Shown piece by piece: positions 2,572 through 28,684 of a stretch of 34,598 nucleotides of DNA. Numbering within the stretch: position 1 is the stretch's first letter; each line of letters opens with the position of its first letter. The notes under the pieces are model-generated. The model was not told the origin of the DNA, searched no databases, and worked only from the letters and a program-made list of their open reading frames with translations. The position numbers were made by a program, and so were the translations under genes. Origin of the DNA: Sulfitobacter sp. HI0040 (GTDB lineage Bacteria; Pseudomonadota; Alphaproteobacteria; Rhodobacterales; Rhodobacteraceae); contig NZ_LWEX01000092.1 of the NCBI RefSeq assembly GCF_001634885.1, positions 1 through 34,598 on the forward strand. The letters run 5' to 3'.

Positions 2572-2573
2572 TA

Positions 2574-2585
2574 GCCTTAAAAGGC
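2574..2585. other. Small palindrome between convergent genes
   Basis: GCCTTAAAAGGC is a perfect 12-base palindrome just after the stop of the RfaH-like gene and before the stop of the convergent glycosyltransferase. It could fold in both transcripts, but neither strand follows it with a U-tract, so calling it a bidirectional terminator would be speculative. Confidence 0.3.
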
Positions 2586-2607
2586 AAGATCGTCGATACC
2601 GCCAGAT

Positions 2608-13257: not shown

Positions 13258-13333
13258 TGGTGCCCCCACACGGACTCGAACCGCGGACCTACTGATTACA
13301 AATCAGTTGCTCTACCAGCTGAGCTATAGGGGC
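13258..13333 (-). tRNA. tRNA-Thr, anticodon UGU
   Basis: On the minus strand the 76-base cloverleaf is complete. The acceptor GCCCCTA (5') pairs with TGGGGGC (3'). The D arm contains AGCTCAGCTGGTAGAGC. The anticodon stem CTGAT/ATCAG encloses the loop TTTGTAA, giving anticodon TGT (reads ACA threonine codons). The T arm CGCGG-TTCGAGT-CCGTG follows. The discriminator A and CCA are encoded (13261-13258). It sits between the convergent choV terminator and the divergent 13461 gene; tRNA genes are common integration sites but no duplicated 3' end was seen in the window. Confidence 0.97.
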
Positions 13334-13460: not shown

Positions 13461-14336
13461 ATGCAGCTGGTTTTACATGCGGGCGTGCATTTCACCGAAG
13501 ACGAACGGTTACTGAAATGCCTGCTGCGCAACGTTGATGATTTCGCGGCGCGGGGTATCGTCGTGCCGGGGCCGGGCAGCTACCGGTCGCTCATTCGCGA
13601 CACGCTCAACGCCATGCACAAGACGCCCGCTTCCCCCGAGGCGCGGGAGGTGCTGCTGGACGCGATGCTGGACGATGCGCCCGCCGAACGGGTGATCCTG
13701 TCGGATGCCAACTTCTTTCGCACCCCGGCCACCGCCATGCAGGAGGGCATGCTCTATCCCGCCGCGCCGGTGCGGATGATGCGCATGTCGCAGCTTTTTC
13801 CCGAGGACCCGATCGAGTTGTTCTTCGCCATCCGCAACCCGGCGACGCTGTTGCCGGTCCTGCTGAAAGAGGCGCAGGATACCTCCGATGCGGCATTCTG
13901 GGGCGGGCGTGAACCGGCGGATGTGAAATGGTCCGAGACGATATCGCAGATCAGGGAAACCGCGCCCGATATCCCCATCACCGTCTGGTGCAACGAGGAT
14001 GCGCCGCTGATCTGGTCGCATATCCTGCGGGAGATCGCGGGCATCGGGTTTGACGAAAAGCTCATCGGGGGGTTCGATCTGCTGACCTCGATCATGTCCA
14101 ACGAGGGGGTGGAACGCTTCCGCGGCTACCTGTCGGCGCATCCCGATATTTCCGAAGTGCAGAAGCGCCGTGTGATCGCGGCCTTCCTAGACAAGTTCGC
14201 GCTCGATGAAGAGATCGAAGAGGAACTGGACATGCCCGGCTGGACGGAAGAGCTCGTCGCGGAGTTGACCGAAGTCTATGACGAGGATGTTCTGGCCATC
14301 CAACGGATTCCCGGCGTCACGGTGCTGACCCCCTGA
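13461..14336 (+). CDS. Uncharacterised protein with weak sulfotransferase-like N-terminus
   Basis: I do not recognise this 291-residue protein with confidence. It is cytoplasmic (no signal peptide or membrane segment) and acidic towards the C-terminus. The opening MQLVLHAGVHFTEDERLLKCLL is shaped like the 'LHIGxHKTGTTxLQ' P-loop of bacterial sulfotransferase-like proteins, but the Lys-Thr-Gly residues that bind the sulfate donor are replaced. Later segments (ILSDANFFR, IELFFAIRNPATLLPVLL, PITVWCNEDAPLIWSHIL) fit the alternating strand/helix layout of that fold. Catalysis by the usual mechanism is unlikely. The gene stands alone between tRNA-Thr and the catabolic operon. Start ATG 13461; Shine-Dalgarno weak. 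Confidence 0.6.
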   Translation: MQLVLHAGVHFTEDERLLKCLLRNVDDFAARGIVVPGPGSYRSLIRDTLNAMHKTPASPEAREVLLDAMLDDAPAERVILSDANFFRTPATAMQEGMLYPAAPVRMMRMSQLFPEDPIELFFAIRNPATLLPVLLKEAQDTSDAAFWGGREPADVKWSETISQIRETAPDIPITVWCNEDAPLIWSHILREIAGIGFDEKLIGGFDLLTSIMSNEGVERFRGYLSAHPDISEVQKRRVIAAFLDKFALDEEIEEELDMPGWTEELVAELTEVYDEDVLAIQRIPGVTVLTP

Positions 14337-14460: not shown

Positions 14461-16752
14461 ATGCGTGCGATATGTCTTGGGGGCGGTCCGGCGGGGCTCT
14501 ACTTCGCGATCTCGCTGAAGTTGCGGCAGCCGGAGGCGCAGGTCACGGTGCTGGAGCGCAACCGCGCCGATGACACTTTCGGCTGGGGCGTCGTGCTGTC
14601 GGACGAGACGCTCGACAACCTCGAAGCCAACGATCCCGTTTCCGCCAAGGAGATCCGCAGCCATTTCGCCTATTGGGACGACATCGCGTTGCATCACAAG
14701 GGCCATACGATCCTGTCGACGGGGCATGGGTTCTGCGGCATCGGGCGCAAGCGCCTGTTGCTGATCCTGCAGGACAGGGCGCGCGCGCTGGGGGTTGATC
14801 TGCAGTTCGAGACGGAGGTGAAGGCCGCCTCCGACTATATGCAGGACTATGACCTCGTGGTGGCCTGCGACGGGCTCAATTCCAAGACGCGGATGGAATT
14901 CGAGGAGACGTTCAAACCCGATATCGACGTGCGGCGCTGCCCTTTCGTCTGGCTCGGCACGCATCAGAAGTTCGACGACGCCTTCACCTTCATCTTCGAA
15001 AAGACGGAGAAGGGTTGGATCTGGGTCCATGCCTACCAGTTTGACAAGGATACCGCGACCTTCATCGTGGAGTGTTCGCAGAAGACCTTCGATGCCTACG
15101 GTTTCGGGGAGATCAGCCAGCAGGAAACCATCGCCATCTGCGAAGAGATCTTCAGGGATCATCTGGACGGTCACAAGCTGATGACCAATGCCAACCACAT
15201 CCGCGGGTCGGCATGGATCAGGTTCCCGCGTGTGCTTTGCGAGAAGTGGAGCCACGAAAACGTCGTGCTGCTGGGCGATGCCTCGGCCACGGCGCATTTT
15301 TCCATCGGATCGGGCACGAAGCTCGCGCTGGAATCCGCGATCTCGCTCGCGCGTCATGTGACGGATGAGCCGGACCTGAAGGTCGCCTTCGAGAAATACG
15401 AGGAGGCGCGCCGCCTCGAAGTGCTGCGGCTGCAATCGGCGGCGCGGAATTCCGTCGAATGGTTCGAGGACGTTGAACGCTACCTCGACCTCGATCCCGT
15501 GCAGCTCAACTATTCGATGCTCACCCGCAGCCAGCGCATCAGCCACGAGAACCTGCGCGCGCGGGACGCGAAATGGCTGGAGGGGGCGGAAAAGTGGTTC
15601 ATGGAACAGGCGGGGGCAGGGGCCAACGGGCCGGTGCGCGCGCCCATGTTCGCGCCATTCCGGCTGCGCGAGATGGAGTTGGTTAATCGCGTCGTCGTCT
15701 CGCCCATGGCGCAATACAAGGCGGTGGACGGCTGCCCGACGGACTGGCACCTCATCCATTACGGCGAACGCGCGAAAGGCGGGGCGGGGCTGGTCTATAC
15801 GGAGATGACCTGCGTCTCGCCGGAGGGGCGCATCACACCGGGTTGCCCGGGTCTTTACGCCCCGGAGCATGAGGCGGCGTGGAAGCGCCTCACCGATTTC
15901 GTCCATGCGGAGACGGAGGCGAAGATCTGCTGCCAGATCGGACATTCCGGGCGCAAGGGTTCCACCCAGCTCGGCTGGGAAGAGATGGACGCGCCCTTGA
16001 AGGCGGGCAACTGGGAAACCGTGAGCGCCAGCGCGATCCCGTGGTCCGACAATAATCCCGCCCCCCGCGCAGCCACCCGCAAGGATATGGACGAGATCCG
16101 CGATGCTTTCGTCGCCGCCGCCGAAATGGCCGACCGGGCGAATTTCGACATGATCGAGCTTCATGCGGCGCATGGTTATTTCATATCCTCCTTCATTTCC
16201 CCGCTCAGCAATACGCGGAAAGACGAATATGGCGGCAGCCTCGAAAACCGGATGCGCTACCCGCTGGAGGTCTTTCGGGCCATGCGCGCGGTCTGGCCGG
16301 AGCATAAACCCATGGCGGTGCGCATTTCGGCCAACGACTGGGCCGGCGATGACGGGGTGACGCCGGAAGAAGCGGTGGAGATCGCGCGCATGTTCGATGC
16401 GGCGGGCGCGGATATCATCGACGTTTCCGCCGGGCAGACCAGCACGCAGGCGCAGCCGGTCTACGGGCGCATGTTCCAGACGCCCTTCTCGGATCGTATC
16501 CGCAATGACGGCGGCATCAAGACGATGGCGGTGGGCAACATCTATGAGGCCGATCACGTCAACTCCATTCTCATGGCCGGACGTGCCGATCTGGTCTGTC
16601 TGGCGCGGCCGCATCTGGCCGATCCATACTGGACCTTGCGGCAGGGTGCGGCGATCGGCGACCGGCACGCCGCATGGCCGCTGCCCTACGGGCCGGGGCG
16701 GGATCAGGCGTGGCGGCTCGCCGACCGCGCGGCAGAGGTGGAAAAGGTATGA
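14461..16752 (+). CDS. 2-aminobenzoyl-CoA monooxygenase/reductase-type fusion
   Basis: This 763-residue fusion matches the domain order and size (about 85 kDa) of 2-aminobenzoyl-CoA monooxygenase/reductase of aerobic anthranilate degradation in Azoarcus evansii, and of proteins often labelled salicylyl-CoA 5-hydroxylase. It would hydroxylate and then reduce the ring of 2-aminobenzoyl-CoA to a non-aromatic cyclohexene-type CoA ester. The N-terminal FAD monooxygenase has GGGPAG (7-12), CDGLNS (136-141) and [15 protein letters not shown] (271-285). After a linker (about 375-395) an old-yellow-enzyme-type FMN domain runs to about 745, with HAAHGYF (568-574) and [13 protein letters not shown] (580-592). 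The ATG at 14461 opens the operon, and the stop overlaps the next start (ATGA). The adjoining aryl-CoA ligase and kynureninase support anthranilate as precursor; salicylyl-CoA remains an alternative substrate. Confidence 0.85.
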
Positions 16753-17468
16753 GACGCGTTCTGGTCACCGGGGGCGGTTCGGGCATCGGGCGCGGGATCG
16801 CGCGGGCCTTCGCGGCGGCGGGCGAGGATGTCACCATCGCCGGGCGCAAGATGGCGGCCCTGCAGGAAACGGACGGCGGGCGCGGTATGACCTGCGTAAC
16901 CGCCGATGTCACGGATGAAGACGCGGTGGAGGCGCTGTTCGACCGGCCCTTTGACGTGGTCGTGGCCAATGCCGGCATGGGGCGCGCTGCCCCGCTGACA
17001 GAGACCACGCTGGAGGACTGGAACCGCACCATCGCGGTGAACATGACCGGCACCTTCCTGACCTTTCGCGCCGCCCTGCGCGGCATGGAAAAGGGCGGGC
17101 GGCTGATTGCTGTCGCCTCCACCGCCGCGCTCTCGGGGGCGCCGCGGGTGGCGGCCTACACGGCATCGAAGCATGGCGTGCTGGGGCTCGTGCGCTCGGT
17201 CGCGCGGGAAGTGGCGAAAAAGGGGATCACCTGCAACGCGATATGCCCCGGTTTTGTCGATACCGATCTGGCCGAGGCCGCGATTACCGGCGTGATGGCG
17301 GGGCGCGGCGTGGACCGCGCGGAAGCGACGCGGATGGTGGTGGCCGGCAATCCCGTGGGGCGGCTCATCTCGGTGGAGGAGGTCACCTCCGCCGCGCTCT
17401 ACCTCGCGTCGCCGGGGGCTTCCATGGTCAATGGCCACGCGCTGAGCGTGTCGGGAGGAGAGACATGA
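16749..17468 (+). CDS. Short-chain dehydrogenase, probable hydroxyacyl-CoA dehydrogenase
   Basis: This 239-residue classical SDR has the cofactor motif TGGGSGIG (7-14), NAG (74-76), catalytic Ser124, Tyr137 and Lys141 (YTASK), and ends in the usual SGGET region. Start ATG 16749 overlaps the stop of the preceding gene by four bases. An arginine after beta-2 (IAGRK) hints at NADP preference but does not settle it. In this operon it probably oxidises a hydroxyl or reduces a keto group on a ring-derived CoA intermediate, in the manner of 3-hydroxyacyl-CoA dehydrogenases. General SDR specificity cannot be read from sequence, so the substrate is inferred from context only. Confidence 0.8.
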
Positions 17469-17947
17469 GCACTCCCACCCCATCGAACGCCCTGCCGTCG
17501 AAAGACCGGCTGCGCCTGTGGCTGCGCCTGCTGAAGCTGACGCGGGGGATCGACGCGCATCTGCGCGAAAAGCTGCGCGTCGAATTCGCGACCACGCTGC
17601 CGCGCTTTGACATGCTGGCCGCGCTCTCGCGGCATCCGGACGGGCTGAAGATGAGCCAGCTTTCGGGCGTGCTGCGCGTCTCCAACGGCAATGTCACCGG
17701 TATCGCGGACCGTCTGGCCGAAGAAGGGCTGGTGGAGCGCGTGCCGGTGCCCGGCGACCGCCGGGCCATGGTGCTGCGCCTGACCCGCCGCGGAAAGACC
17801 GAGTTCGCCCGGCAGGCGCAGGCCCATGAGGCCTGGATCGATACCATGCTGGCTGACGTCTCCGCCGAGGACGCCCGCTACATGGCCGGAAAACTGGCGG
17901 CCATCGCAGCCGCCGCGGAAACAAAGGAAAACGCCCATGCGCAGTGA
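17465..17947 (+). CDS. MarR-family transcriptional regulator
   Basis: This 160-residue winged-helix regulator has the recognition-helix region [20 protein letters not shown] and the wing with the conserved [13 protein letters not shown] motif, flanked by N- and C-terminal dimerisation helices. MarR proteins in aromatic-CoA clusters usually repress their operon until a CoA thioester or free aromatic acid binds. It is co-transcribed (4-base overlap with the SDR, 11-base overlap with the crotonase), implying autoregulation. A plausible binding site is the inverted repeat at 14394-14415. The ligand is unknown; 2-aminobenzoyl-CoA or anthranilate would fit. Confidence 0.88.
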
Positions 17948-18737
17948 CGTGCAGCATTTCGACTGCAGCATCAAAGACCGGATCGCCACCGTGCGGCTGG
18001 ACCGGCCCGACCGCAAGAACCCGCTGACCTTCGACAGCTATGCCGAATTGCGCGACTGGTTCCGCGATCTCGTCTACGCCGACGATGTCGATGTGGTGAT
18101 CTTCGGCTCCAATGGCGGCAACTTCAGTTCGGGCGGGGATGTGCATGACATCATCGGCCCGCTCACACGTATGTCGATGAAGGAGCTTCTTCAGTTCACC
18201 CGGATGACCGGCGATCTGGTGAAGGCCATCGTGAATTGCGGCAAACCCGTCATCGCGGCGGTGGACGGGATCTGCGTGGGCGCGGGGGCCATCATCGCGA
18301 TGGCATCGGACCTGCGCATCGCCACGCCCGAGGCAAAGACCGCCTTCCTGTTCACCCGCGTGGGCCTTGCGGGCTGCGACATGGGGGCCTGTGCCATCCT
18401 GCCGCGCATCATCGGCCAGACGCGCGCGGCGGAACTGCTTTATACCGGGCGCTCCATGAGCGCGGAGGAGGGCGAGCGCTGGGGGTTCTTCAACCGGCTC
18501 GTAGAGGCGGGCGAACTGGACGAGGCGGCGCTGACATTGGCCCGCCAGATCAAAGCGGGACCCAACTTTGCCCATATGATGACCAAGACGATGCTGGCGC
18601 AGGAATGGTCGATGTCGATCGAACAGGCCATCGAGGCAGAGGCGCAGGCGCAGGCCATCTGCATGCAGACGGGTGATTTCGAACGGGCCTACAAGGCTTT
18701 CGTGGCGAAGGAAAAGCCCGTTTTCGAGGGGGATTGA
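17937..18737 (+). CDS. Enoyl-CoA hydratase/isomerase-family protein
   Basis: This 266-residue crotonase starts at ATG 17937, preceded by AAAGGA. Oxyanion-hole segments are SSGGDVHD (64-71) and DGICVGAGA (110-118). At the usual second-glutamate position the sequence reads [18 protein letters not shown] (143-160), with Asp148 rather than the Glu-Glu pair of true enoyl-CoA hydratases. Related family members with this DMG motif include isomerases and C-C bond hydrolases. In this operon a ring-opening hydrolase or hydratase for the dearomatised 2-aminobenzoyl-CoA product is needed, and this is the best candidate. The biochemical step remains inferred. Confidence 0.85.
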
Positions 18738-18754
18738 TCGTGGCGGATGTGGGA

Positions 18755-18793
18755 GCCTCCGGCGGGGATTTTAAACCATTTGGAAGCGGAGGC
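18755..18793 (+). repeat. Copy 2 of the intergenic repeat, with a hairpin covering a ribosome-binding site
   Basis: Bases 18755-18786 match 13158-13189 at 31 of 32 positions. Here the opening GCCTCCG (18755-18761) has a perfect inverted partner CGGAGGC (18787-18793). That partner contains the GGAGG Shine-Dalgarno (18788-18792) of the acyl-CoA dehydrogenase gene, whose ATG is at 18801. Pairing of the arms around a 25-base loop would hide the ribosome-binding site. Effect on translation is inferred. Confidence 0.65.
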
Positions 18794-18800
18794 TTCGCGC

Positions 18801-19946
18801 ATGGCTGATCGCAGCTACCTGCTCTGGCCGTTCTTCGAGGCGCGGCACCGCGAACTGGCCGAGGCGCTGGACGACTGGGCCACGCGCAATCTATGCGACG
18901 TGGATCATTCGGATACCGATGCCGCCTGCCGGCAGTTGGTACGGATGCTGGGCGCGGGCGGCTGGCTGCGCCATTCGGGCGCGGGCGCGGGCGAGACGCT
19001 TGATGTGCGCTCGCTCTGTCTTGTCCGCGAAACGCTGGCGCGGCATGACGGATTGGCCGATTTCGCCTTTGCCATGCAGGGGCTGGGGACCGGGGCGATT
19101 TCGCTTTTCGGCACCGAGGAACAGCGCGGCTGGCTGGAGCGTACGCGGGCAGGTGAGGCGATTTCGGCCTTTGCGCTGACCGAGCCGCAATCGGGGTCGG
19201 ACGTGGCCAATTCGACCATGACGGCGGCGCCCGATGGGAATGGATTCTTGCTCAATGGGCGCAAGACCTGGATTTCGAACGGCGGGATCGCCGATGTCTA
19301 TACCGTCTTTGCCCGCACGGGGGAGGCGCCGGGCGCCAAGGGGCTTTCCGCCTTCGTTGTGCCCGCAGACACGCCGGGGCTGAAGATCGAAGAACGGCTG
19401 GAGGTCATGGCGCCGCATCCCTTGGCCACGCTGCATTTCGACGGCGTGAAGGTACCGGGGTCTGCGCTGATTGGCGAAGCGGGCCGGGGCTTCGGCATCG
19501 CCATGTCGGTGCTCGATGTGTTCCGCTCCACCGTGGCGGCAGCGGCGCTGGGCTTTGCTAGCCGGGCGCTCGACGAGGCGATCGGGCGCGTGACCCGGCG
19601 CGAGGTGCAGGGCGCGCCGCTTGCGGATTTGCAGATGGTGCAGGGCCATATCGCGGATATGGCGGTGGATGTGGATGCCTCCGCGCTGCTGGTCTACCGC
19701 GCCGCCTGGACGAAGGACAGCGGAGCGGCCCGCGTCACCCGCGAGGCCGCGATGGCCAAGCTCTTTGCGACGGATCATGCGCAGCAGGTGATCGACCGGG
19801 CGGTTCAGTTGCACGGCGGCGACGGCGTGCGGCACGGCGAGACGGTCGAGCGGCTTTACCGCGAAATCCGCGCGTTGCGTATCTACGAAGGCGCGTCCGA
19901 CGTGCAGCGCGTCGTCATCGCGCGGCAGACGTTGGGAGGAGGATGA
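18801..19946 (+). CDS. Acyl-CoA dehydrogenase
   Basis: This 381-residue flavoprotein would introduce a double bond into a CoA thioester and pass electrons to electron-transfer flavoprotein. The FAD/substrate motifs [13 protein letters not shown] (about 125-137) and [17 protein letters not shown] (156-171) are clear. The C-terminal catalytic glutamate is Glu363 in [10 protein letters not shown]. The start is set at ATG 18801, seven bases after GGAGG, because upstream in-frame codons run through the intergenic repeat. It lies 63 bases after the crotonase gene and one base before the ligase gene. In this pathway it would act after ring opening, in a glutaryl- or pimelyl-CoA-like step; the exact substrate is unknown. 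Confidence 0.88.
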
Positions 19947-19947
19947 C

Positions 19948-21567
19948 ATGCTGAAGCGCTCTGGACATCTGGACAGTTTCGCGCGGGACAACCTGCCGCC
20001 GCAGGACCAATGGCCCGACTTCCTGCTTGGCGGGTTCGATTATCCGGACCGGCTGAACCTTGGCGTGGAACTGACCGATGCCATGGTGAAAAAGGGGTTC
20101 GGTGATCATACCGCGTTGATCGGGAACGGGCGCAGGCGGACCTACAAGGAGCTGGCCGACTGGACGAACCGGCTGGCGGCGGCGCTGGTCGAAAACTTCG
20201 GGGTGAAGCCGGGCAACCGCGTGCTCATCCGGTCCGTCAACAACCCGGCGATGGTGGCCTGCTGGCTCGCCGCGACAAAGGCGGGGGCGGTGGTCGTCAA
20301 CACCATGCCCATGCTGCGAGCGGGCGAATTGGCCGCCATCGTGGACAAGGCAGAAATCAGCCACGCGCTTTGCGACACGCGCCTGATGGATGAGCTGACC
20401 ACCTGTGCCAAGACGTCCGACCATCTGCGCACGGTGGTGGGCTTCGACGGCACCAGCAACCATGACGCGGAGCTTGACCGGGCGGCGCTGGAAAAGCCCG
20501 TCCAGTTCGAGGCCGCCGATACCGCGCAGGACGATGTGGCGCTTTTGGGATTTACCTCGGGCACCACGGGCAGCCCGAAGGCCACGATGCATTTCCATCG
20601 GGACCTCTTGATCATCGCGGATGGCTACGCGCGCGAGGTGCTGCAGGTGGTGCCCGAGGATGTCTTCGTGGGCTCGCCGCCGCTAGCCTTTACCTTCGGG
20701 CTTGGCGGGCTTGCCGTCTTTCCGCTTCGCTTCGGGGCGGCGGCGACGCTGCTGGAGACCGCCAGCCCGCCCAACATGATCGAGATTATCGAGAAATATA
20801 AGGCGACCGTCTGCTTTACCGCGCCCACGGCCTATCGTGCGATGTTGCAGGCGATGGAGGAAGGTGCAGACCTGTCGAGCCTGCGCGCCGCCGTCAGCGC
20901 GGGCGAGACGCTGCCCGCCCCAGTCTATCACGACTGGAAGGAAAAGACCGGCAAGCCGATGCTGGACGGGATCGGCGCGACAGAGATGCTCCATATCTTC
21001 ATCTCCAACCGCTTCGACGATCACCGCGCCGCCTGTACCGGCAAGCCGGTCACGGGATATGAGGCCCGTATCATCGACGAACACGGTAACGATGTGCCGC
21101 ACGGTGAAGTGGGTCGGCTGGCGGTGCGCGGGCCCACAGGGTGCCGCTATCTGTCGGACGCGCGTCAGGCGGCCTATGTGCAGGACGGCTGGAACATCAC
21201 CGGCGACAGTTTCGTGATGGACGCGGATGGCTATCTGCATTTCGCCGCGCGCAACGACGACATGATCATCTCGTCGGGCTACAACATCGCGGGCCCGGAG
21301 GTGGAGGCCGCGCTGCTTTCTCACCCGTCGGTCAGCGAATGCGCCGTGGTGGGCAAGCCCGACGATGCGCGCGGTGCCATCGTCCAGGCCCATGTGGTGC
21401 TGGTGGAGGGGGCCACGGGCGACGCCCGGACCGTCAAGGCCCTGCAGGAGCATGTGAAGAACGCCATCGCACCCTACAAATACCCGAGGGAGGTCGTCTT
21501 CGTCGACGCGCTGCCCAAGACGCCGACAGGCAAGATCCAGCGGTTCGCGCTGCGGGAGCGGTCATGA
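19948..21567 (+). CDS. Benzoate-CoA ligase-family enzyme, probable 2-aminobenzoate-CoA ligase
   Basis: This 539-residue ANL-superfamily ligase activates a carboxylic acid with ATP and coenzyme A. The P-loop is TSGTTGSPK (203-211). The hinge region lies in [12 protein letters not shown], and the catalytic lysine is Lys529 ([11 protein letters not shown]). Its layout resembles benzoate- and 2-aminobenzoate-CoA ligases rather than fatty-acid ligases. Start ATG 19948 follows GGAGGATGAC. The stop overlaps the tryptophan dioxygenase start (ATGA), tying anthranilate formation to its activation. Anthranilate as substrate is inferred from the fused monooxygenase/reductase and kynureninase in the same operon; benzoate or salicylate are alternatives. 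Confidence 0.85.
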
Positions 21568-22391
21568 GCGAATTCGGCGAGGCATCGGAGGGGGCGAAGA
21601 TGCGCTTTGGCGATGCGATGTCCTATGGCGACTACCTTGGCCTCGAAAAGATCCTTTCGGCCCAGTCCCCCCTGTCCGATGCCCATGACGAGATGCTGTT
21701 CATCATCCAGCACCAGACCAGCGAATTGTGGATGCGGCTGGCGATCCACGAATTGCAGGCGGCGCGCAAGGTGATGGAGCATGACGACCTGCAGCCCGCG
21801 TTCAAGATGCTCAGCCGCGTGGCGCGGATATTCGAGCAGCTCAACAACGCATGGGACGTGCTGCGCACCATGACCCCCAGCGAATACACCGCCTTCCGGC
21901 CATCGCTGGGCAAATCCAGCGGCTTCCAGTCGCATCAATACCGGCTCATCGAATATATCCTGGGCAACCGTAATGCAGCGCTCATGTCGCTGCATGAACA
22001 CCGCGGAGAGGACCACCGGGTGCTCAAGGCGGAACTGGCGCGGCCCAGCCTCTACGAGGCTGCGATCGGTGTGCTCTGCGCCCGGCTGGGCGCGCCTCCG
22101 CCTGCCCGGGCCTCGGGAGAAGGGGACTGGAAGGCGCTGAAGGAGGTGCAGGACCTCTGGCAAAGGGTCTACGAGGATCCGGCGCACTACTGGGAGCTTT
22201 ACGAACTGGCCGAAAAGCTCGTCGATCTGGAGGATTATTTCCGCCGCTGGCGGTTCAACCATGTCACCACCGTGGAACGGATCATCGGGTTCAAGCGGGG
22301 GACGGGGGGCACAAGCGGCGTCGCCTATCTGCGCAAGATGCTGGAAGTGGAATTGTTTCCCGAATTGTGGAACGTGAGGGGAGCGCTGTAA
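21564..22391 (+). CDS. kynA: Tryptophan 2,3-dioxygenase
   Basis: TDO opens the indole ring of L-tryptophan with O2 to give N-formylkynurenine, using heme. The 275-residue protein carries the distal histidine His50 in [11 protein letters not shown], the substrate-carboxylate arginine Arg112 in [13 protein letters not shown], and the proximal heme ligand His233 in [17 protein letters not shown]. The C-terminal [12 protein letters not shown] loop is typical of the family. Length matches bacterial homotetrameric TDOs. The start overlaps the ligase stop by four bases, and the stop is directly followed by the kynureninase GTG, so the three are translationally coupled. Confidence 0.96.
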
Positions 22392-23582
22392 GTGTCCGAC
22401 GTGCTTAGGAAAAACGAATTCGTCCTGCCGGAGGGCGTAGTCTATCTCGATGGTAATTCGCTGGGTCCCTTGCCGAAGAAGGTCGGCGCGCGGGTGCAGC
22501 GGATGCTGGCGGACGAATGGGGCGATATGCTGATCCGGGGCTGGAACAAGGCCGGCTGGATGGACCAGCCCGCCCGGGTCGGCAATATGGTCGGGCGTCT
22601 GATCGGGGCGGCGGAAGGTTCCGTCGTCATGGGGGATACCCTGTCGATCAAGGTGTTTCAGGCGCTGGCCTCCGCGGTCAAGCTGCGCCCGGACCGCCGC
22701 GTGATCCTGAGCGATACGGGCAACTTTCCCTCCGATCTCTATATGGCCGAAGGTCTGGTGGGGCTGCTGGAGCAGGGGTACGAGTTGCGCACCGTCGCCC
22801 CCGAAGAAGTAGCCGAAGCCATCTCGGAGGAGGTTGCCGCCGTTCTGCTGACAGAGGTCGATTACCGCACGGGGCGGCTGCATGACATGAAAACCGTGAC
22901 GGAACTGGCCCACGCGGCGGGGGCGGTGATGATCTGGGATCTGGCCCATTCCGCCGGGGCGCTGCCGGTGGATCTGGCGGGCAGCAATTGCGAATTCGCC
23001 GTGGGATGCACCTACAAATATCTCAACGGGGGGCCGGGGGCGCCCGCGTTCATCTATGTCCGGCCCGATCTGGCCGATAGCGTGCAACCGGCGTTGAGCG
23101 GCTGGCTGGGTCACCGCCAGCCTTTCGAATTCGATCTGAGCTACCGGCCCGGGCAGGGGATCGAGAGGATGCGCGTGGGCACCCCGCCCGTTATCCAGCT
23201 GACCGCGCTGGAAGTGGCGATGGAGCTCTGGGAGGGCATCGACATGCAGGCGCTCCGCCGCGCCTCGCTGGCGCTGCAGGAGCAGTTCATCGAAGAGATC
23301 GAATCCAAAGCGCCGCAACTGACGCTTGCCAGCCCGCGGGACCCCGCGCGGCGCGGCAGTCAGGTCAGCTTTCGCTTTGCCGAAGGCTATGCGGCGATGC
23401 AGGCGATCATCGACCGGGGCGTGATCGGCGATTTCCGCGCGCCCGACATCATGCGCTTCGGGTTCACGCCGCTCTACCTCGACGCCGGGGACGTGAGCCG
23501 CGCGGTGGCGATCATCGCCGAGGTCATGAAAGACAGCCTGTGGGATAACGAGACGTACAAGACCCGCGCGCGCGTCACCTGA
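22392..23582 (+). CDS. kynU: Kynureninase
   Basis: Kynureninase is a PLP enzyme that cleaves L-kynurenine to anthranilate and L-alanine. The 396-residue sequence has the start-proximal YLDGNSLGPLP motif, an aromatic substrate region (RGWNKAGWMDQ), SDTGNFPSDLYM, PLP-contacting IWDLAHSAGALPVDL, and the Schiff-base lysine Lys209 in CTYKYLNGGPGAP. GTG 22392 is used as start, immediately after the TDO stop. The usual middle enzyme, kynurenine formamidase (KynB), is not seen between or around them. The product anthranilate is the expected substrate of the nearby CoA ligase. Confidence 0.96.
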   Translation: MSDVLRKNEFVLPEGVVYLDGNSLGPLPKKVGARVQRMLADEWGDMLIRGWNKAGWMDQPARVGNMVGRLIGAAEGSVVMGDTLSIKVFQALASAVKLRPDRRVILSDTGNFPSDLYMAEGLVGLLEQGYELRTVAPEEVAEAISEEVAAVLLTEVDYRTGRLHDMKTVTELAHAAGAVMIWDLAHSAGALPVDLAGSNCEFAVGCTYKYLNGGPGAPAFIYVRPDLADSVQPALSGWLGHRQPFEFDLSYRPGQGIERMRVGTPPVIQLTALEVAMELWEGIDMQALRRASLALQEQFIEEIESKAPQLTLASPRDPARRGSQVSFRFAEGYAAMQAIIDRGVIGDFRAPDIMRFGFTPLYLDAGDVSRAVAIIAEVMKDSLWDNETYKTRARVT

Positions 23583-23632
23583 TGCCGTGCTTGACGGGGT
23601 GGTGCCAATCGCCCCTCATAACATCATCGAAA

Positions 23633-23652
23633 CGGCCCGGCTAACGGGGCCG
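23633..23652 (+). other. Hairpin in the leader before the substrate-binding-protein gene
   Basis: CGGCCC (23633-23638) and GGGCCG (23647-23652) form a 6-base stem 20 bases before the start codon. It has no U-tract. It may stabilise the 5' end of a processed message or belong to the 90-bp kynU/transporter gap that could hold a secondary promoter. Confidence 0.35.
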
Positions 23653-23672
23653 CCATACCAAGGGAGAAGGAA

Positions 23673-24824
23673 ATGAAGTTCAAGTCATTGATCGCAGCCG
23701 CATCCATCGCGGCGCTGAGCGCGGGGTCCGCATGGGCCGATGCGCATATGGACAAGGTCAAGGTCGGTATGATCACGACGCTTTCGGGCGGTGGAGCGGG
23801 CCTTGGCATCGATGTGCGCGACGGGTTCATGCTGGCCGCCAAAATGGCCGGGAACGAGAATCTGGAGGTCGTGGTGGAGGACGACCAGCGCAAGCCCGAC
23901 ATCGCGGTGCAACTGGCCGACAAGATGGTGCAGTCGGAAAAGGTCGATGTGCTGACCGGGATCATCTGGTCGAACCTCGCCATGGCGGTGGTGCCTGCGG
24001 TGACCGCGCAGGGCAAGTTCTACCTGTCGCCCAACGCGGGCCCCTCGGCGCTGGCGGGCAAGGGCTGTTCGCCCAACTACTTCAACGTCAGCTGGCAGAA
24101 CGACGCCTTCAACGAGGCGGCGGCCATGTGGGCCAATGACAACGACGTTAAGAACGTCTTCCTGATGGCGCCCAACTATCCCGCCGGTCAGGACATGATC
24201 GCGGGCTTCAAGCGGTTCTACGAAGGTGACATCGCGGCCGAGGTCTATACCAAGCTGGGTCAGACCGACTATGCCGCCGAGATCGCGCAGATGCGCGCCT
24301 CCGATGCAGATACGATCTATTTCTTCCTGCCGGGCGGCATGGGGATTTCCTTCATGAAACAATACGCCGGTTCCGGTGTCGACAAGGCGGTGATGGGCCC
24401 GGCCTTCAGCTTCGATCAGGGTATTCTGGGTGCCATCGGGGACGCCGCTCTGGGGGTCAAGAACACGTCCCACTGGTCGAAGGACATCGACAACGCCGCC
24501 AACAAGACCTTCGTGGAGGAGTTCCAGAAGGAATATGGCCGCCTGCCGTCGCTTTATGCAGCCCAAGGTTACGACACGGCCAATCTGCTGCTGAGCGCCA
24601 TGGAAAAGGCAAGCGTGACGGATGCGGATGCCTTCCGCGCCGCACTCAAGGAAGCGGATTTCGAGTCTGTCCGGGGCAAGTTCCGCTTTGCCGAGAACCA
24701 TCACCCCATCCATGACATCTTCATGCGCGAGGTGGTCAAGGAAGGCGACGTGGTCACGAACAAGATCATCGGCACCGCCGCCGCCGACCATCAGGACGCC
24801 TACGGCGGCGACTGCAAGATGTGA
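23673..24824 (+). CDS. LivJ-type ABC transporter substrate-binding protein
   Basis: This 383-residue periplasmic protein has a signal peptide (LIAAASIAALSAGSAWA, cleavage near Ala22) and two Peripla_BP_6 lobes (VGMITTLSGGGAGLGIDVRDG at the N-lobe; ASDADTIYFFLPGGMGISFMKQ in the C-lobe). Many relatives in aromatic-degradation operons bind aromatic acids instead of branched-chain amino acids. Its place after kynureninase suggests tryptophan, kynurenine, anthranilate or a hydroxylated derivative as ligand; the sequence alone does not decide. A strong AAGGGAGAAGG ribosome-binding site precedes ATG 23673. A terminator hairpin follows, so it is probably made in excess over the membrane subunits. Confidence 0.88.
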   Translation: MKFKSLIAAASIAALSAGSAWADAHMDKVKVGMITTLSGGGAGLGIDVRDGFMLAAKMAGNENLEVVVEDDQRKPDIAVQLADKMVQSEKVDVLTGIIWSNLAMAVVPAVTAQGKFYLSPNAGPSALAGKGCSPNYFNVSWQNDAFNEAAAMWANDNDVKNVFLMAPNYPAGQDMIAGFKRFYEGDIAAEVYTKLGQTDYAAEIAQMRASDADTIYFFLPGGMGISFMKQYAGSGVDKAVMGPAFSFDQGILGAIGDAALGVKNTSHWSKDIDNAANKTFVEEFQKEYGRLPSLYAAQGYDTANLLLSAMEKASVTDADAFRAALKEADFESVRGKFRFAENHHPIHDIFMREVVKEGDVVTNKIIGTAAADHQDAYGGDCKM

Positions 24825-24830
24825 CCGGAC

Positions 24831-24856
24831 GGCCCCGGCGCTGTGCCGGGGCCTTT
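24831..24856 (+). terminator. Intrinsic terminator or attenuator between the binding-protein and permease genes
   Basis: GGCCCCGGC (24831-24839) pairs perfectly with GCCGGGGCC (24845-24853) around a 5-base loop and is followed by TTT. It sits six bases after the binding-protein stop, the same layout as between choX and choW, and likely causes partial termination. Confidence 0.78.
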
Positions 24857-24907
24857 CCAACCTGCCAAGGGTCCGGGGACCCGCCCGGACCGGAGTAGAA
24901 TACCCCA

Positions 24908-25825
24908 ATGACGACGATATTGCTGATCGAGCAGATCCTGAACGGGCTGCAATCGGGCATCATGCTGTTTCTCATGGCCGCCGGGCTCACGCTCATTTTC
25001 GGGGTCATGGGGCTGATCAACCTCGCCCATGGCTCGCTCTACATGGTGGGGGCCTTCGCGGCCGCTGCCGTGGCGGCGGCCACGGGATCCTTCGCGCTGG
25101 GGCTGGTAGCGGCCTTGATCGCCGCAGCAGCGGCGGGCGCGCTGATCGAACTGGTGGTGATCCGCAGGCTCTATGACCGCGACCACCTCGATCAGGTGCT
25201 CGCGACCTTTGCATTGATCCTTGTCTTTTCCGAAGGCACGCGGTGGCTCTTCGGGTCCTTTCCGCTCTATCTCGATGTGCCTGCGGCGCTGTCGGGGCCG
25301 GTGACACTGCCCGGTGGCATCCTCTATCCGGCCTACCGGCTGCTGATCATCGGGGTCGGGCTGCTGATTGCCGTGGGGCTTTTCGCGCTCATCGCGCGCA
25401 CCCGCATCGGCATCCAGATCCGCGCGGGCGAGGCGGACCGGGAGATGATCGCCGCTCTCGGGGTGGATATCTCCAAACTCTATACCCTCGTCTTCGCGCT
25501 GGGTGCCGCACTCGCCGGGCTGGCGGGGGCCATGGTAGGCGCCATCCAGTCGGTGCAGGTCGGCATGGGCGAGCCGGTGCTGATCCTTGCCTTCGTCGTC
25601 ATCGTCATCGGCGGGATCGGGTCCATCAAGGGCGCGCTGGTGGGTGCGCTGCTGGTGGGTCTGACCGATACGCTGGGCGGGGTGCTGCTGCCCCTCGGCT
25701 TCGGTGCTTTCATGGACCAGTCCGCCGCGACCTCCATCGGATCGGCGCTGGCGTCGATGTCGATCTACATTCTGATGGCGGGGGTGCTGCTGTTCAAGCC
25801 CACCGGCCTCTTCGGGGAGGGGTGA
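24908..25825 (+). CDS. LivH-type ABC transporter permease
   Basis: This 305-residue inner-membrane permease belongs to the branched-chain amino-acid (BPD_transp_2) family, with about eight hydrophobic segments. Family motifs are GLTLIFGVMGLINLAHGSLYMVGAF near the N-terminus and the cytoplasmic coupling segment IGIQIRAGEADREMIAALGVD, which contacts the ATPases. GGIGSIKGALVGALLVGL is a further conserved stretch. It pairs with the LivM-type subunit four bases downstream. The Shine-Dalgarno (GGAG) is somewhat far from ATG 24908. Confidence 0.9.
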   Translation: MTTILLIEQILNGLQSGIMLFLMAAGLTLIFGVMGLINLAHGSLYMVGAFAAAAVAAATGSFALGLVAALIAAAAAGALIELVVIRRLYDRDHLDQVLATFALILVFSEGTRWLFGSFPLYLDVPAALSGPVTLPGGILYPAYRLLIIGVGLLIAVGLFALIARTRIGIQIRAGEADREMIAALGVDISKLYTLVFALGAALAGLAGAMVGAIQSVQVGMGEPVLILAFVVIVIGGIGSIKGALVGALLVGLTDTLGGVLLPLGFGAFMDQSAATSIGSALASMSIYILMAGVLLFKPTGLFGEG

Positions 25826-25829
25826 GACC

Positions 25830-26813
25830 ATGCGCCGCGAAGCCATCCTGAACATCGTCCTTTTCCTGCTGCTGCCCGTGACCGCCGGGGCGGCGCTGCT
25901 GCTGGATGAACCTTTCATCATCACGCTTGCGACCAAGGCCGCGATCCTCGCGCTGGCGGGCGTCGGCCTTAACATCGCGCTGGGGCTCGGCGGGCTCGTG
26001 TCGCTGGGGCACGCCGCCTTTTTTGGGCTGGGGGGCTATGCCATGGGCATTCTCGCCGCCCACGCGCAAAGCTATACACCGCTGATGGAGACGCCTTTCC
26101 TGATCGAGGGCACGAAGTCCATGCCGGTGATCTGGCTGGTGGCGATCGTTGTCGCAGGCTTGGCGGCACTGGCCATCGGCGCGCTGAGCCTGCGCACCAG
26201 CGGTGTCTATTTCATCATGATCACGCTCGCCTTCGGGCAGATGCTCTATTACTTCGCGATCTCATGGCCTGCCTACGGCGGGGAGGACGGGCTTTCGATC
26301 TATGTGCGCAACGGGTTTCCGGGGCTGAATACGCTCGATCCGATACAGTTCTTCGCCATCGCCTTCGTCGTGCTGGCGCTGGCGCTGCTCCTTGCCGGGC
26401 GGCTGGCGCGGTCCGCCTTCGGCCTCGCCCTTTCGGCGGCGCGCCAGAACGCGGAGCGGGTGGAGACCGTGGGCCTTGCGCCCTATCGTCTGCGGCTCGT
26501 GGCCTTCGTGATTTCCGGGGCGATCACCGGGCTTGCCGGGGCGCTTTTCGCCGACCTCAACCGTTTTGTGAGCCCGGTGATGTTCAGCTGGCAGACCAGC
26601 GGGGAGATCATGGTTTTCGTGATCCTCGGCGGGGTGGGGCGGCTTTACGGGCCGGTGGCCGGGGCGGCCCTGTTCATCCTGCTGGAACATGTCCTCGGGG
26701 GTTTGAGCGAATATTGGCACGTCTATCTCGGCCTGCTGCTCCTGATGGTGGTGCTCTTTGCCCGGGGCGGGCTGATCGGCACCGTCGCGGGACGGGAGGT
26801 GGCGCATGACTGA
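25830..26813 (+). CDS. LivM-type ABC transporter permease
   Basis: This 327-residue permease is the second channel subunit of the importer. It shows the LivM hallmarks GLNIALGLGGLVSLGHAAFFGLG, LSLRTSGVYFIMITLAFGQM and the coupling loop ALSAARQNAERVETVGL. The start ATG 25830 follows GGGGAGGGG. The 3' end overlaps the ATPase gene by eight bases. Together with LivH it would form the translocation path for the ligand brought by the preceding binding protein. Confidence 0.9.
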   Translation: MRREAILNIVLFLLLPVTAGAALLLDEPFIITLATKAAILALAGVGLNIALGLGGLVSLGHAAFFGLGGYAMGILAAHAQSYTPLMETPFLIEGTKSMPVIWLVAIVVAGLAALAIGALSLRTSGVYFIMITLAFGQMLYYFAISWPAYGGEDGLSIYVRNGFPGLNTLDPIQFFAIAFVVLALALLLAGRLARSAFGLALSAARQNAERVETVGLAPYRLRLVAFVISGAITGLAGALFADLNRFVSPVMFSWQTSGEIMVFVILGGVGRLYGPVAGAALFILLEHVLGGLSEYWHVYLGLLLLMVVLFARGGLIGTVAGREVAHD

Positions 26814-27564
26814 CCGCGCGATCCTGCGGGTGGAGAACCTGAGCAAGAGTTTCGGCGCGCTGAAAGCCACGGATGACGTGTCGCTGACGGTGATGCCCGG
26901 CGAGATCCATGCGCTGATCGGACCGAACGGTGCCGGGAAATCGACGCTGATCAAACAGGTCGCCGGGGGGTTGCGCAACGACGCCGGGCGGATCTGGTTC
27001 GACGGCGAAGACGTCACGCCGCTGGGCACCGTGGCACGGGCGCGCGCGGGGCTGGGGCGGACCTTCCAGATATCCTCGCTCGCCATGGAATACACCGTGT
27101 TGCAGAACGCGGTGCTGGGCGCTTTGGGGCGGCGCGGCGGGGCCATGCGTTTCTTTGCCCCCGTGATGGCAAAGGGAGAGCTGCGCGAGCGTGCCATGGG
27201 CGCGCTGGAACGCGTGGGCCTGCAGGACCACGCGATGAAGCGCACGGCGGACCTTAGCCATGGGCAGCGCCGCCAGCTTGAGGTCGCCGTGGCGCTGACG
27301 CTGGAGCCGAAGGTGTTCCTGATGGACGAGCCGATGGCGGGGCTCGGGGCGAGCGGGTCAAAATCCATGACCGGCTTTCTCGACGGGTTGCGCAGCGAGG
27401 CACCGATCCTGCTGGTCGAACATGACATGGACGCGGTTTTCGCGCTGGCGGACCGTATTTCGGTGCTGGTCTACGGCAAGATCATCGCCAGCGGCGGGGC
27501 GGAGGACATCCGCCGCGACCCGGTGGTCCGCGAAGCCTATCTGGGTGCGGAGGACGCGGCATGA
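26806..27564 (+). CDS. LivG-type ABC transporter ATP-binding protein
   Basis: This 252-residue ATPase has Walker A GPNGAGKST, the LivG-type Q-loop region GLGRTFQISSLAMEYTVLQN, a variant signature LSHGQ (as in many LivG proteins), Walker B VFLMDEPMAGL and the switch histidine in LLVEHDMDAVF. It forms a heterodimer with the next subunit to drive uptake. It overlaps livM by eight bases and livF by four. Confidence 0.92.
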   Translation: MTDRAILRVENLSKSFGALKATDDVSLTVMPGEIHALIGPNGAGKSTLIKQVAGGLRNDAGRIWFDGEDVTPLGTVARARAGLGRTFQISSLAMEYTVLQNAVLGALGRRGGAMRFFAPVMAKGELRERAMGALERVGLQDHAMKRTADLSHGQRRQLEVAVALTLEPKVFLMDEPMAGLGASGSKSMTGFLDGLRSEAPILLVEHDMDAVFALADRISVLVYGKIIASGGAEDIRRDPVVREAYLGAEDAA

Positions 27565-28250
27565 GCTTTCTTTCGGTCGAAGGCATCTGCGCCTCCTACG
27601 GGCCGTCGCAGGCGCTTTTCGGTGTGGACCTTGCGCTGGAGGAAGGCGAGGTCTGTGCCCTGATGGGCCGCAACGGGATGGGCAAATCCTCCACCATCAA
27701 GGTGATCTGCCGCATGCTGCGTCATTCGGCGGGGCAGGTGACGTTCGATGGCCGCGACCTCGGCCCGATGCCCAGCCACAAGGCCGCACAAGCGGGTCTG
27801 GGGCTGGTGCCCGAGGGGCGGCGCTGTTTCGGGCCGCTCACCGTTTATGAAAACCTGATCGCCGCCGCCCGCCCGGGCGCGTGGGACTACGACCGTGTCT
27901 GCACGCTCTTTCCGCGTCTGGGCGAACGCCGCGACCAGCAGGCGGGGCTGCTTTCGGGGGGCGAGCAGCAGATGCTGGCTATTGGCCGCGCGCTGATGAC
28001 CAATCCGCGCCTGCTGATCCTCGACGAGGCGACCGAAGGCCTCGCCCCCGTGGTCAGGCAGGAGATCTGGGACGCGGTGGCGACGCTGAAGCGCGACACC
28101 GGGCTCGCGCTCATCGTGGTGGATAAATCGCTGGCTGAACTGCGGCGCGTGGCGGACCGGGCCGTGGTGCTGGAACGGGGGCGCACCGTTTGGGCCGGTG
28201 CGATGCGCGATCTGGACCGGCAGGTCGCCGATACATACCTCGGCGTCTGA
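27561..28250 (+). CDS. LivF-type ABC transporter ATP-binding protein
   Basis: This 229-residue ATPase has Walker A GRNGMGKSS, LGLVPEGRRCFGPLTVYENL (LivF Q-loop region), signature LSGGEQQM, and Walker B LLILDEATEGLAP. At the switch-histidine position the sequence reads LIVVDKSLAELRR, so the usual His of 'VEQN/VEH' type loops is replaced by Asp-Lys; LivF proteins often deviate here, leaving catalysis to the partner LivG. The gene ends the transporter set, 26 bases before the Rid-family gene. Confidence 0.92.
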   Translation: MSFLSVEGICASYGPSQALFGVDLALEEGEVCALMGRNGMGKSSTIKVICRMLRHSAGQVTFDGRDLGPMPSHKAAQAGLGLVPEGRRCFGPLTVYENLIAAARPGAWDYDRVCTLFPRLGERRDQQAGLLSGGEQQMLAIGRALMTNPRLLILDEATEGLAPVVRQEIWDAVATLKRDTGLALIVVDKSLAELRRVADRAVVLERGRTVWAGAMRDLDRQVADTYLGV

Positions 28251-28276
28251 GCCGGGAGAGACTCAAGGGGATCACT

Positions 28277-28684
28277 ATGGGACATCGAGTCATTCAGCCC
28301 GAAGGCTGGGCACCGGCAAAGGGCTATGCCAACGGCATCCTCAGCGCGGACGGGCATCTTTTCGTGGGCGGCCAGATCGGCTGGACCGCGGACCAGCGCT
28401 TCGAGGCGCATGATTTCATCGGCCAGATGACGCAGGCGCTGCGCAACATCCGCGCCGTGGTCGAAGCGGCGGGCGGTGTCCCCGAGGATATCGTCCGGCT
28501 GACATGGTATGTCACCGACAAGGCCGAATACCTCGCCGCGCAGGCGGAGGTGGGCCGGGCCTACCGCGAAGTGATGGGCCGCCATTTCCCCGCCATGGCG
28601 ATGGTGGTGGTCAACGCACTGGTCGAGGATGACGCCAAGGTTGAGATCGAGGCGACGGCGGTGCTTTCCTCCGCGCGGGGCTGA
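28277..28684 (+). CDS. Rid-family (YjgF/YER057c/UK114) protein lacking the catalytic arginine
   Basis: This 135-residue protein has the Rid trimer fold. YANGILSADGHLFVGGQIGW opens the domain, MTQALRNIRAVVEAAGG is the central helix, and KVEIEATAVL closes it. Classical RidA enzymes hydrolyse enamine/imine intermediates using an arginine in 'PARSxVxV'. Here the aligned stretch reads FPAMAMVVVNAL, so Arg is replaced by Met, as in Rid subgroups of unknown activity. The expected product of 2-aminobenzoyl-CoA dearomatisation is an enamine, so a role in releasing its amino group is attractive but mechanistically unproven. ATG 28277 follows AAGGGG. Confidence 0.82.
   Translation: MGHRVIQPEGWAPAKGYANGILSADGHLFVGGQIGWTADQRFEAHDFIGQMTQALRNIRAVVEAAGGVPEDIVRLTWYVTDKAEYLAAQAEVGRAYREVMGRHFPAMAMVVVNALVEDDAKVEIEATAVLSSARG

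What the first reader, a model, noticed from the sequence alone, without database searches (positions are those of the whole stretch)
14461..28684. Tryptophan-to-anthranilate-to-2-aminobenzoyl-CoA catabolic island with its own importer and Rid protein
One strand carries, with overlaps or tiny gaps, a fused FAD/FMN 2-aminobenzoyl-CoA monooxygenase/reductase-type gene, SDR, MarR, crotonase, acyl-CoA dehydrogenase, aryl-CoA ligase, tryptophan 2,3-dioxygenase and kynureninase, followed by LivJHMGF and a Rid protein. The hybrid CoA route for anthranilate is known from Azoarcus evansii, while kynurenine-pathway bacteria usually pass anthranilate to dioxygenases via catechol. Ligase, TDO and kynureninase are translationally coupled here (ATGA overlap and direct abutment). 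That implies tryptophan is oxidised through the CoA pathway as a single unit, possibly with direct uptake of the inducer by the Liv system.
Basis: partly seen in the sequence, partly recalled or inferred. Interest (0 to 1): 0.75.

Follow-up and report, generated by a model that had tools for sequence, protein, structure and literature searches.

The report
Tryptophan-anthranilate CoA operon with Rid
A run of bacterial genes that probably burns tryptophan by turning it into anthranilate and opening the ring as a coenzyme A ester; its small Rid protein tracks the key enzyme so closely across the genomes sampled that it is probably the unassigned enzyme that removes the amino group.

Summary
In detail: one strand carries an ABMR-type flavoprotein fusion, SDR, MarR, crotonase, acyl-CoA dehydrogenase, aryl-CoA ligase, TDO, kynureninase, LivJHMGF and a Rid protein, most of them overlapping or close. 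The anthranilate-CoA reading holds: the ligase is 53% identical to an assayed anthranilate-CoA ligase, and searches of the genome found no AntA, nbaC or gentisate dioxygenase over threshold. No formamidase was found in the unit; candidates lie elsewhere. The arrangement is not rare: named Sulfitobacter/Roseobacter genomes share it, and TDO, kynureninase and Liv are optional neighbours of a CoA core. The unexpected part is Rid: in 65 of 65 ABMR genomes of a family sample (5 of 133 others) and 69 of 71 of a phylum sample (0 of 327 others at E<=1e-40). It has Met (Leu once in 107) for RidA's carboxylate-binding Arg. The two RID-less ABMR genomes, and one genome's second ABMR locus, have gentisate-dioxygenase-like neighbours and lack the ligase. 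[quoted passage not shown] No activity was measured. New variant of a known kind.

The parts
14461..16752 (+). ABMR: two-domain flavoprotein (FAD monooxygenase + OYE-like FMN reductase), predicted 2-aminobenzoyl-CoA monooxygenase/reductase (NCBI name: bifunctional salicylyl-CoA 5-hydroxylase/oxidoreductase)
   Evidence: NF006101 1298 bits, cut-off 1078; FAD_binding_3 + Oxidored_FMN; 48% identity to putative ABMR ARUE_113p00230
16749..17468 (+). SDR oxidoreductase, ATGA overlap with ABMR; its step in the pathway is inferred
   Evidence: PF13561/PF00106 on the longer ORF; start
17465..17947 (+). MarR-family regulator, ATGA overlap with SDR
   Evidence: PF12802/PF01047 on the longer ORF; start
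17937..18737 (+). Crotonase/enoyl-CoA hydratase family
   Evidence: NF006107 479.6 bits, cut-off 330
18747..19946 (+). Acyl-CoA dehydrogenase
   Evidence: PF00441/PF02770; none of the 21 NCBIfam matches is over its cut-off
19948..21567 (+). Aryl-CoA ligase, predicted anthranilate-CoA ligase
   Evidence: TIGR02262 379.5 bits, cut-off 375; best PDB match 4wv3 anthranilate-CoA ligase; 53% to assayed ARUE_113p00220
21564..22391 (+). Tryptophan 2,3-dioxygenase, ATGA overlap with ligase
   Evidence: PF03301 246 bits, cut-off 34.9; TIGR03036 382.6 bits, just below cut-off 390.7
22392..23582 (+). Kynureninase, GTG start abutting the TDO stop
   Evidence: TIGR01814 278 bits, cut-off 246
23673..24824 (+). 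LivJ-like substrate-binding protein
   Evidence: PF13458 276.5 bits
24908..25825 (+). LivH-like permease
   Evidence: PF02653 119 bits
25830..26813 (+). LivM-like permease
   Evidence: PF02653 132 bits
26806..27564 (+). LivG-like ATPase
   Evidence: PF00005 and PF12399
27561..28250 (+). LivF-like ATPase
   Evidence: PF00005 102 bits
28277..28684 (+). Rid protein (Met in place of the RidA Arg); predicted deaminase of the ABMR product
   Evidence: PF01042 77.2 bits, cut-off 27.3; genome profiles; residue table

Best explanation
The stretch is a catabolic operon that takes tryptophan to anthranilate and anthranilate through the aerobic coenzyme A (2-aminobenzoyl-CoA) route. TDO and, after a formamidase encoded elsewhere, kynureninase give anthranilate; the ligase makes 2-aminobenzoyl-CoA; [quoted passage not shown] the Rid protein hydrolyses that enamine to 2,5-dioxocyclohexanecarboxyl-CoA plus ammonia; SDR, crotonase and acyl-CoA dehydrogenase carry the deaminated ring on towards beta-oxidation. 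The Liv transporter most likely imports anthranilate or a related aromatic acid. Shown here: gene identities by family, overlaps, conservation, the Rid-ABMR co-occurrence, the Met-for-Arg change. Inferred: every enzymatic step in this organism, the Rid substrate, the transporter substrate, the order after deamination.
For: Gene identities. Ligase 53% identical to an assayed anthranilate-CoA ligase. In the genome: AntA best 116 bits (cut-off 672), no nbaC match, no gentisate dioxygenase match at E<=1e-40. Rid, family sample of 198: in 65 of 65 ABMR genomes and 5 of 133 others, 4 of which hold other genes of the core. Rid, phylum sample of 398: in 69 of 71 ABMR genomes, 0 of 327 others at E<=1e-40, 3 of 327 at 1e-20 to 1e-21. 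It is kept when not beside ABMR: 47 of 65 within 15 kb, 4 further on the same contig, 14 on another contig. It follows the core, not TDO: in 28 of 34 family ABMR loci of >=17 kb without local TDO, in 0 of 20 TDO loci of >=19 kb without the core. The RidA Arg that binds substrate carboxylate (PMC4433059, passages) is Met in 106 and Leu in 1 of 107 strong hits, as expected if the acid is a thioester. The two RID-less ABMR genomes and the second ABMR locus of G417 have gentisate-dioxygenase-like and FAHH neighbours and not the ligase and ACD of this type; G417's other ABMR locus has all of these plus Rid; they sit in two places of the ABMR tree. Anthranilate-grown Arthrobacter Rue61a, whose pAL1 has ABMR, ligase and a Met-type Rid, holds a C7H8O4-CoA that its authors say might be cyclohexanedione-carboxyl-CoA, the deaminated product.
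Against: No enzyme of this genome has been assayed. The enamine may hydrolyse on its own (hydrolytic deamination was seen chemically), so Rid might not be needed for flux. Genomes in the samples are related, so Fisher values overstate independence; profile A1 was built almost wholly from loci picked by their ABMR or TDO. The 'gentisate' neighbours score below the TIGR02272 cut-off (306 and 322 vs 442 bits) and also resemble 5-aminosalicylate dioxygenase (275 and 270 vs 650), so their substrate is a guess; L221 has a weak crotonase-type hit (32% identity). RID occurs beside such genes without ABMR (L243, L245), and with them in L092, L204 and L246. 8 of 50 long family ABMR loci have no local Rid, and in L203 and L205-L207 Rid stands apart from the core, neighbours not examined. 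G064 and G108 have Rid and no ABMR found. No formamidase in the operon. TDO just misses TIGR03036. Rue61a does not grow on gentisate or 5-hydroxyanthranilate, so how loci with cupin/FAHH genes finish is unclear.
Confidence: 0.63

Rival explanations
1. The operon is as described, but Rid is only a damage-control protein that mops up stray imines/enamines to protect PLP enzymes such as kynureninase; the ABMR product deaminates spontaneously or later in beta-oxidation.
For: RidA-type proteins do this for 2-aminoacrylate (PMC4433059, start of abstract and passages); kynureninase is a PLP enzyme in the same operon; hydrolytic deamination can be chemical.
Against: The 3 family ABMR genomes with no TDO match still have Rid (G026, G037, G102; kynureninase was not searched genome-wide); 28 of 34 ABMR loci without local TDO have Rid; the Arg needed for RidA imine hydrolysis is absent in 107 of 107 strong hits.
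Confidence: 0.15
2. The NCBI name is right: ABMR is a salicylyl-CoA 5-hydroxylase and the ligase acts on salicylate or benzoate, feeding a gentisate-type route; TDO and kynureninase are neighbours only.
For: NF006101 name; some ABMR homologues sit with gentisate-dioxygenase-like and FAHH genes.
Against: No gentisate dioxygenase match in this genome at E<=1e-40; ligase nearest to an anthranilate-CoA ligase in the PDB and 53% to an assayed one; coupling of ligase with TDO recurs in 34 of 146 loci; 62 of 65 ABMR genomes have TDO; Rid would have no amino substrate.
Confidence: 0.07
3. Rid acts on a different aminated intermediate: a later acyclic amino-acyl-CoA or, where cupin/FAHH genes replace the beta-oxidation genes, a ring-cleavage product like 2-aminomuconate.
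For: Rid relatives are 2-aminomuconate deaminases (cited in PMC4433059 and PMC6449761, passages); RID occurs with gentisate-dioxygenase-like and FAHH genes without ABMR in L243 and L245.
Against: RID accompanies both kinds of lower pathway, whose main common enzyme is ABMR; C7H8O4-CoA in Rue61a fits deamination at the alicyclic stage.
Confidence: 0.15

Closest known systems
Aerobic 2-aminobenzoyl-CoA pathway of Azoarcus (Aromatoleum) evansii
   Same: Ligase and monooxygenase/reductase followed by beta-oxidation-type enzymes (as described in review PMC4539516, passages)
   Different: Here joined to TDO and kynureninase in one coupled unit, with Liv transporter and Rid; A. evansii sequences not compared
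Arthrobacter sp. Rue61a pAL1 anthranilate genes (ARUE_113p00220/00230)
   Same: Ligase 53%, ABMR 48%, Rid 36% identical with Met kept; cells make anthraniloyl-CoA and a C7H8O4-CoA
   Different: Fed by quinaldine, not tryptophan; thioesterase, cupin and FAHH genes instead of SDR/crotonase/acyl-CoA dehydrogenase
Ruegeria pomeroyi DSS-3 megaplasmid cluster SPO_RS21860-21905
   Same: ABMR-SDR-MarR-crotonase-ACD-cupin-ligase-Rid, with hydrolase and TDO divergent
   Different: TDO divergent, extra cupin, HSL-family hydrolase next to TDO; no Liv genes or kynureninase of this type in the stretch
kyn and abm genes in Cupriavidus metallidurans CH34
   Different: That strain did not grow on anthranilate there; gene order and any Rid not looked at here
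RidA / Rid superfamily deaminases
   Same: PF01042 member; the Glu is kept in 107 of 107 strong hits
   Different: The Arg105 equivalent is Met, so not of the Arg-bearing RidA/Rid1-3 group of PMC4433059; which of Rid4-7 it is, if any, was not tested

Membership tests
2-aminobenzoyl-CoA (abm) pathway | two-domain FAD monooxygenase/FMN reductase fusion | tested here: met
   NF006101 over cut-off, FAD_binding_3 + Oxidored_FMN
2-aminobenzoyl-CoA (abm) pathway | anthranilate-CoA ligase | tested here: met
   by homology only: 53% to an assayed enzyme, best PDB match 4wv3
2-aminobenzoyl-CoA (abm) pathway | beta-oxidation-type follow-up enzymes encoded alongside | tested here: met
   SDR, crotonase, acyl-CoA dehydrogenase
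2-aminobenzoyl-CoA (abm) pathway | homology to the purified A. evansii enzymes | not tested
   A. evansii not among the 60 of 95 plasmid records shown; no other source was searched for it by name
2-aminobenzoyl-CoA (abm) pathway | enzyme activity / 2-aminobenzoyl-CoA in cells | not testable with these tools
   needs the bench
kynurenine pathway to anthranilate | TDO | tested here: met
   PF03301 over cut-off; TIGR03036 382.6 vs 390.7
kynurenine pathway to anthranilate | kynureninase | tested here: met
   TIGR01814 over cut-off
kynurenine pathway to anthranilate | N-formylkynurenine formamidase (KynB, TIGR03035) | tested here: inconclusive
   31 bits vs 223 in the genome; PF04199 proteins and an HSL-family hydrolase over cut-off are candidates on other contigs
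RidA subfamily | Rid domain PF01042 | tested here: met
   77.2 bits, cut-off 27.3
RidA subfamily | Arg105 equivalent | tested here: not met
   Met in the window protein and in 106 of 107 strong hits, Leu in 1
salicylyl-CoA 5-hydroxylase / gentisate route | gentisate 1,2-dioxygenase in the genome | tested here: not met
   no TIGR02272 match at E<=1e-40 in G000
anthranilate 1,2-dioxygenase (catechol) route | AntA (TIGR03228) | tested here: not met
   best 116 bits vs cut-off 672

The most novel reading that the evidence does not exclude
A whole Arg-less (Met-type) Rid subfamily is an obligate catabolic enzyme, a deaminase for a coenzyme A-thioester enamine, and is the unassigned step of aerobic anthranilate degradation in bacteria; losing the Arg that grips a carboxylate is what fits it to a thioester substrate.
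Probability: 0.55. Interest if true: 0.7.

Novelty: new variant of a known kind. Interest (0 to 1): 0.57.

Why it matters
It gives a concrete, quickly testable enzyme for the deamination step of aerobic anthranilate degradation via CoA, and a job for Rid proteins that lack the arginine thought essential, which PMC4433059 says presumably serve other functions. It also suggests that many genes named 'salicylyl-CoA 5-hydroxylase' belong to anthranilate/tryptophan catabolism, and that Rid in the genome is a handle for telling the two apart; in roseobacter-like marine bacteria tryptophan may often be broken down through CoA esters.

Tried and rejected
Salicylate/gentisate reading: rejected for this genome but kept for L221, L222, L241. 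Mobile island at tRNA-Thr (13258-13333): no search for an integrase or att repeats was made; relatives carry the module on plasmids, so no integration event is claimed. Crotonase as a BadI-like ring hydrolase (BadI recalled): its model is not among the 25 of 70 NCBIfam matches listed, so not claimed. Structure prediction of Rid: not obtained. A replacement of ABMR in front of the core in G055, G139 and G108: I saw none among the upstream ORFs by reading them (no family scan); G055 and G139 have a divergent ABMR elsewhere. The AP-3 2-aminomuconate deaminase paper (PMC6742747) gave no active-site passage. Literature: among the rows listed by searches (at most 15-20 rows each, while one search had 1,412 papers, 172, 71, 69, 30 and 22) no title or abstract start names a Rid protein in this pathway, or TDO joined to it in roseobacters; most subscription journals are not held, so this is weak evidence of absence.
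Full report
1. What is there. Fourteen genes on the + strand, 14461-28684: ABMR, SDR, MarR, crotonase, acyl-CoA dehydrogenase (ACD), aryl-CoA ligase, TDO, kynureninase, LivJHMGF and Rid. Start sites refined from the sequence give four ATGA overlaps (ABMR-SDR, SDR-MarR, ligase-TDO, LivG-LivF) and direct abutment of TDO and kynureninase. Upstream lie an ORF without a Pfam match at E<=1e-8 (13461-14336) and tRNA-Thr on the other strand; downstream are zinc-transport genes on both strands and a PhoX-family gene.

2. Which pathway. The ligase is 53% identical over 537 residues to ARUE_113p00220 of Arthrobacter Rue61a, which, made in E. coli, had anthranilate-CoA ligase activity (PMC3534580, passages), and its best solved relative is an anthranilate-CoA ligase (4wv3). 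ABMR is 48% identical to the putative ABMR next to that ligase. In the window's own genome the alternatives are missing or weak: AntA best 116 bits against a cut-off of 672, no nbaC match, no gentisate dioxygenase match at E<=1e-40. The formamidase between TDO and kynureninase was not found in the operon; TIGR03035 gives 31 bits (cut-off 223), on another contig. Candidates are two PF04199 proteins and an HSL-family hydrolase (400 bits, cut-off 320) whose R. pomeroyi relative is the neighbour of TDO. With that R. pomeroyi protein as query, 23 fetched loci hit at E<=1e-30: its own L180, the window genome's L218 (44% identity) and 21 more; in 9 of the 23 (L180 among them; L051 and L162 look like one genome) it lies within 300 bases of TDO.

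3. How common. NF006101 is over cut-off in 65 of 198 genomes of the family sample. I fetched 66 family loci (64 of these 65 genomes, the window's own being in hand, plus two with sub-cut-off copies) and 80 named TDO loci, the best 80 of 519 confirmed. Named Sulfitobacter and Roseobacter genomes show the full window order (for example L105, L106, L108, L110, L112). Of 50 family ABMR loci of at least 17 kb, with the two sub-cut-off loci left out: SDR 46, MarR 48, ligase 47, crotonase 49, ACD 49, Rid 42, TDO 16, kynureninase 8, at least four Liv genes 16. So TDO, kynureninase and Liv are optional in the locus, although 62 of the 65 ABMR genomes have a TDO match somewhere.

4. The Rid protein. Family sample: Rid (E<=1e-15, weakest match 3e-34) in 65 of 65 ABMR genomes and 5 of 133 others, phi 0.945; TDO against ABMR gives 62 both, 3 ABMR only, 30 TDO only, phi 0.686. 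Of the five others, G055, G139, G108 and G142 hold more of the core; G064 is unexplained. Phylum sample of 398 genomes: ABMR (E<=1e-200) in 71, Rid profile in 69 of these and in 0 of 327 others at E<=1e-40, phi 0.983; at 1e-20 three others appear, phi 0.957. The samples hold related genomes (by genus 45 and 46 of 212), so the Fisher probabilities are not to be taken literally. Rid is within 15 kb of ABMR in 47 of 65 family genomes, further on the same contig in 4, on another contig in 14. The 12 plasmid loci that I opened, picked by hand of 60 listed and 95 found, all have a RidA-family gene in the stretch, from Alpha- and Betaproteobacteria to Deinococcus, Actinomycetota and a haloarchaeon. 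Local control: 0 of 20 TDO loci of at least 19 kb without the core have it.

5. Its active site. HMMER aligns Met of the window protein with the Arg of the FPAR stretch of HI0719; that this is the Arg105 position of RidA is recalled, not shown by a call. Over 107 strong tblastn hits in the loci then fetched (some species twice, so not independent), the position is Met in 106 and Leu in 1, and the Glu is kept in 107; nine weaker hits were left out of the count, one with Met, six with Ala, one with Ser, one not reaching the position. PMC4433059 (passages) says this Arg binds substrate carboxylate, that changing it to Ala almost completely abolished activity, and that subfamilies without it presumably serve other functions. 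A CoA thioester has no such carboxylate.

6. A natural test. The two phylum genomes with ABMR but no Rid match (G539, G487) have ABMR beside a gentisate-dioxygenase-like gene, FAHH and a small thioesterase, and show no hit to this ligase or ACD in 20 kb (L221 has a weak crotonase hit, 32%). The dioxygenase-like proteins score 322 and 306 bits, below the TIGR02272 cut-off of 442, and resemble 5-aminosalicylate dioxygenase nearly as well, so their substrate is a guess. G417 has two ABMR loci: one like these without Rid (L241), the other with SDR, MarR, crotonase, ACD, ligase, Liv and Rid (L242). On a midpoint-rooted FastTree of 81 ABMR proteins (a subset of the fetched loci taken by locus number and by hand) L222 and L241 pair together and L221 lies apart, both next to Rid-bearing loci; support for those inner branches was not printed. 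So Rid seems to be lost where the substrate probably has no amino group. Against too neat a rule: Rid and gentisate-dioxygenase-like genes occur together in L092, L204, L246, L243 and L245, the last two without ABMR.

7. Chemistry. [quoted passage not shown] Water in, ammonia out gives C7H8O4. [quoted passage not shown] the main text of that paper has no occurrence of YjgF or RidA. Rid enzymes hydrolyse enamines and imines. I therefore put the deamination on Rid. What follows is inferred; loci with thioesterase, cupin and FAHH must end differently, and Rue61a does not grow on gentisate or 5-hydroxyanthranilate.

8. Verdict. The catabolic unit is a new variant of a known pathway and widespread in this family. 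The new and testable point is the Rid partner. No activity was measured here, and no row listed by the searches of the open library (lists capped at 15-20 rows) showed a paper that names it by title or start of abstract.

Noticed in passing
   Followed up: partly
L198 (G055, same genus as the window), L200 (G139), L212 (G108): The core SDR-MarR-crotonase-ACD-ligase with Rid but no ABMR in front; G055 and G139 have a divergent ABMR (47% identity) elsewhere, for G108 none was found.
   Followed up: partly
L182, L187, L188, L190, L231: A second kind of ABMR locus with FAHH and small cupin (and in several thioesterase) genes in place of crotonase and ACD, still with Rid.
   Followed up: partly
L218 (G000 contig C79) and L180:13091-13867: HSL-family hydrolase that is TDO's neighbour in R. 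pomeroyi: a candidate kynurenine formamidase of a kind other than KynB.
   Followed up: partly
L203, L205, L206, L207: Rid of the ABMR type standing far from ABMR with no other core gene in 20 kb; what its neighbours are was not looked at.
   Followed up: no
window 2001-4000: G+C drops to 47% (the other 2-kb steps are 57-69%) over a glycosyltransferase and an epimerase gene on the - strand, perhaps acquired DNA.
   Followed up: no
window 13461-14336: A 291-aa ORF with no Pfam match at E<=1e-8 whose relatives lie in 12 of the 80 named TDO loci, ahead of the operon or of TDO in several.
   Followed up: no
family NF006101 hits 2-384 in frames of about 900-960 aa (for example G062:C1:195131-196243): At least eight of the listed family genomes have the ABMR FAD half in a larger, different open frame.
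   Followed up: no
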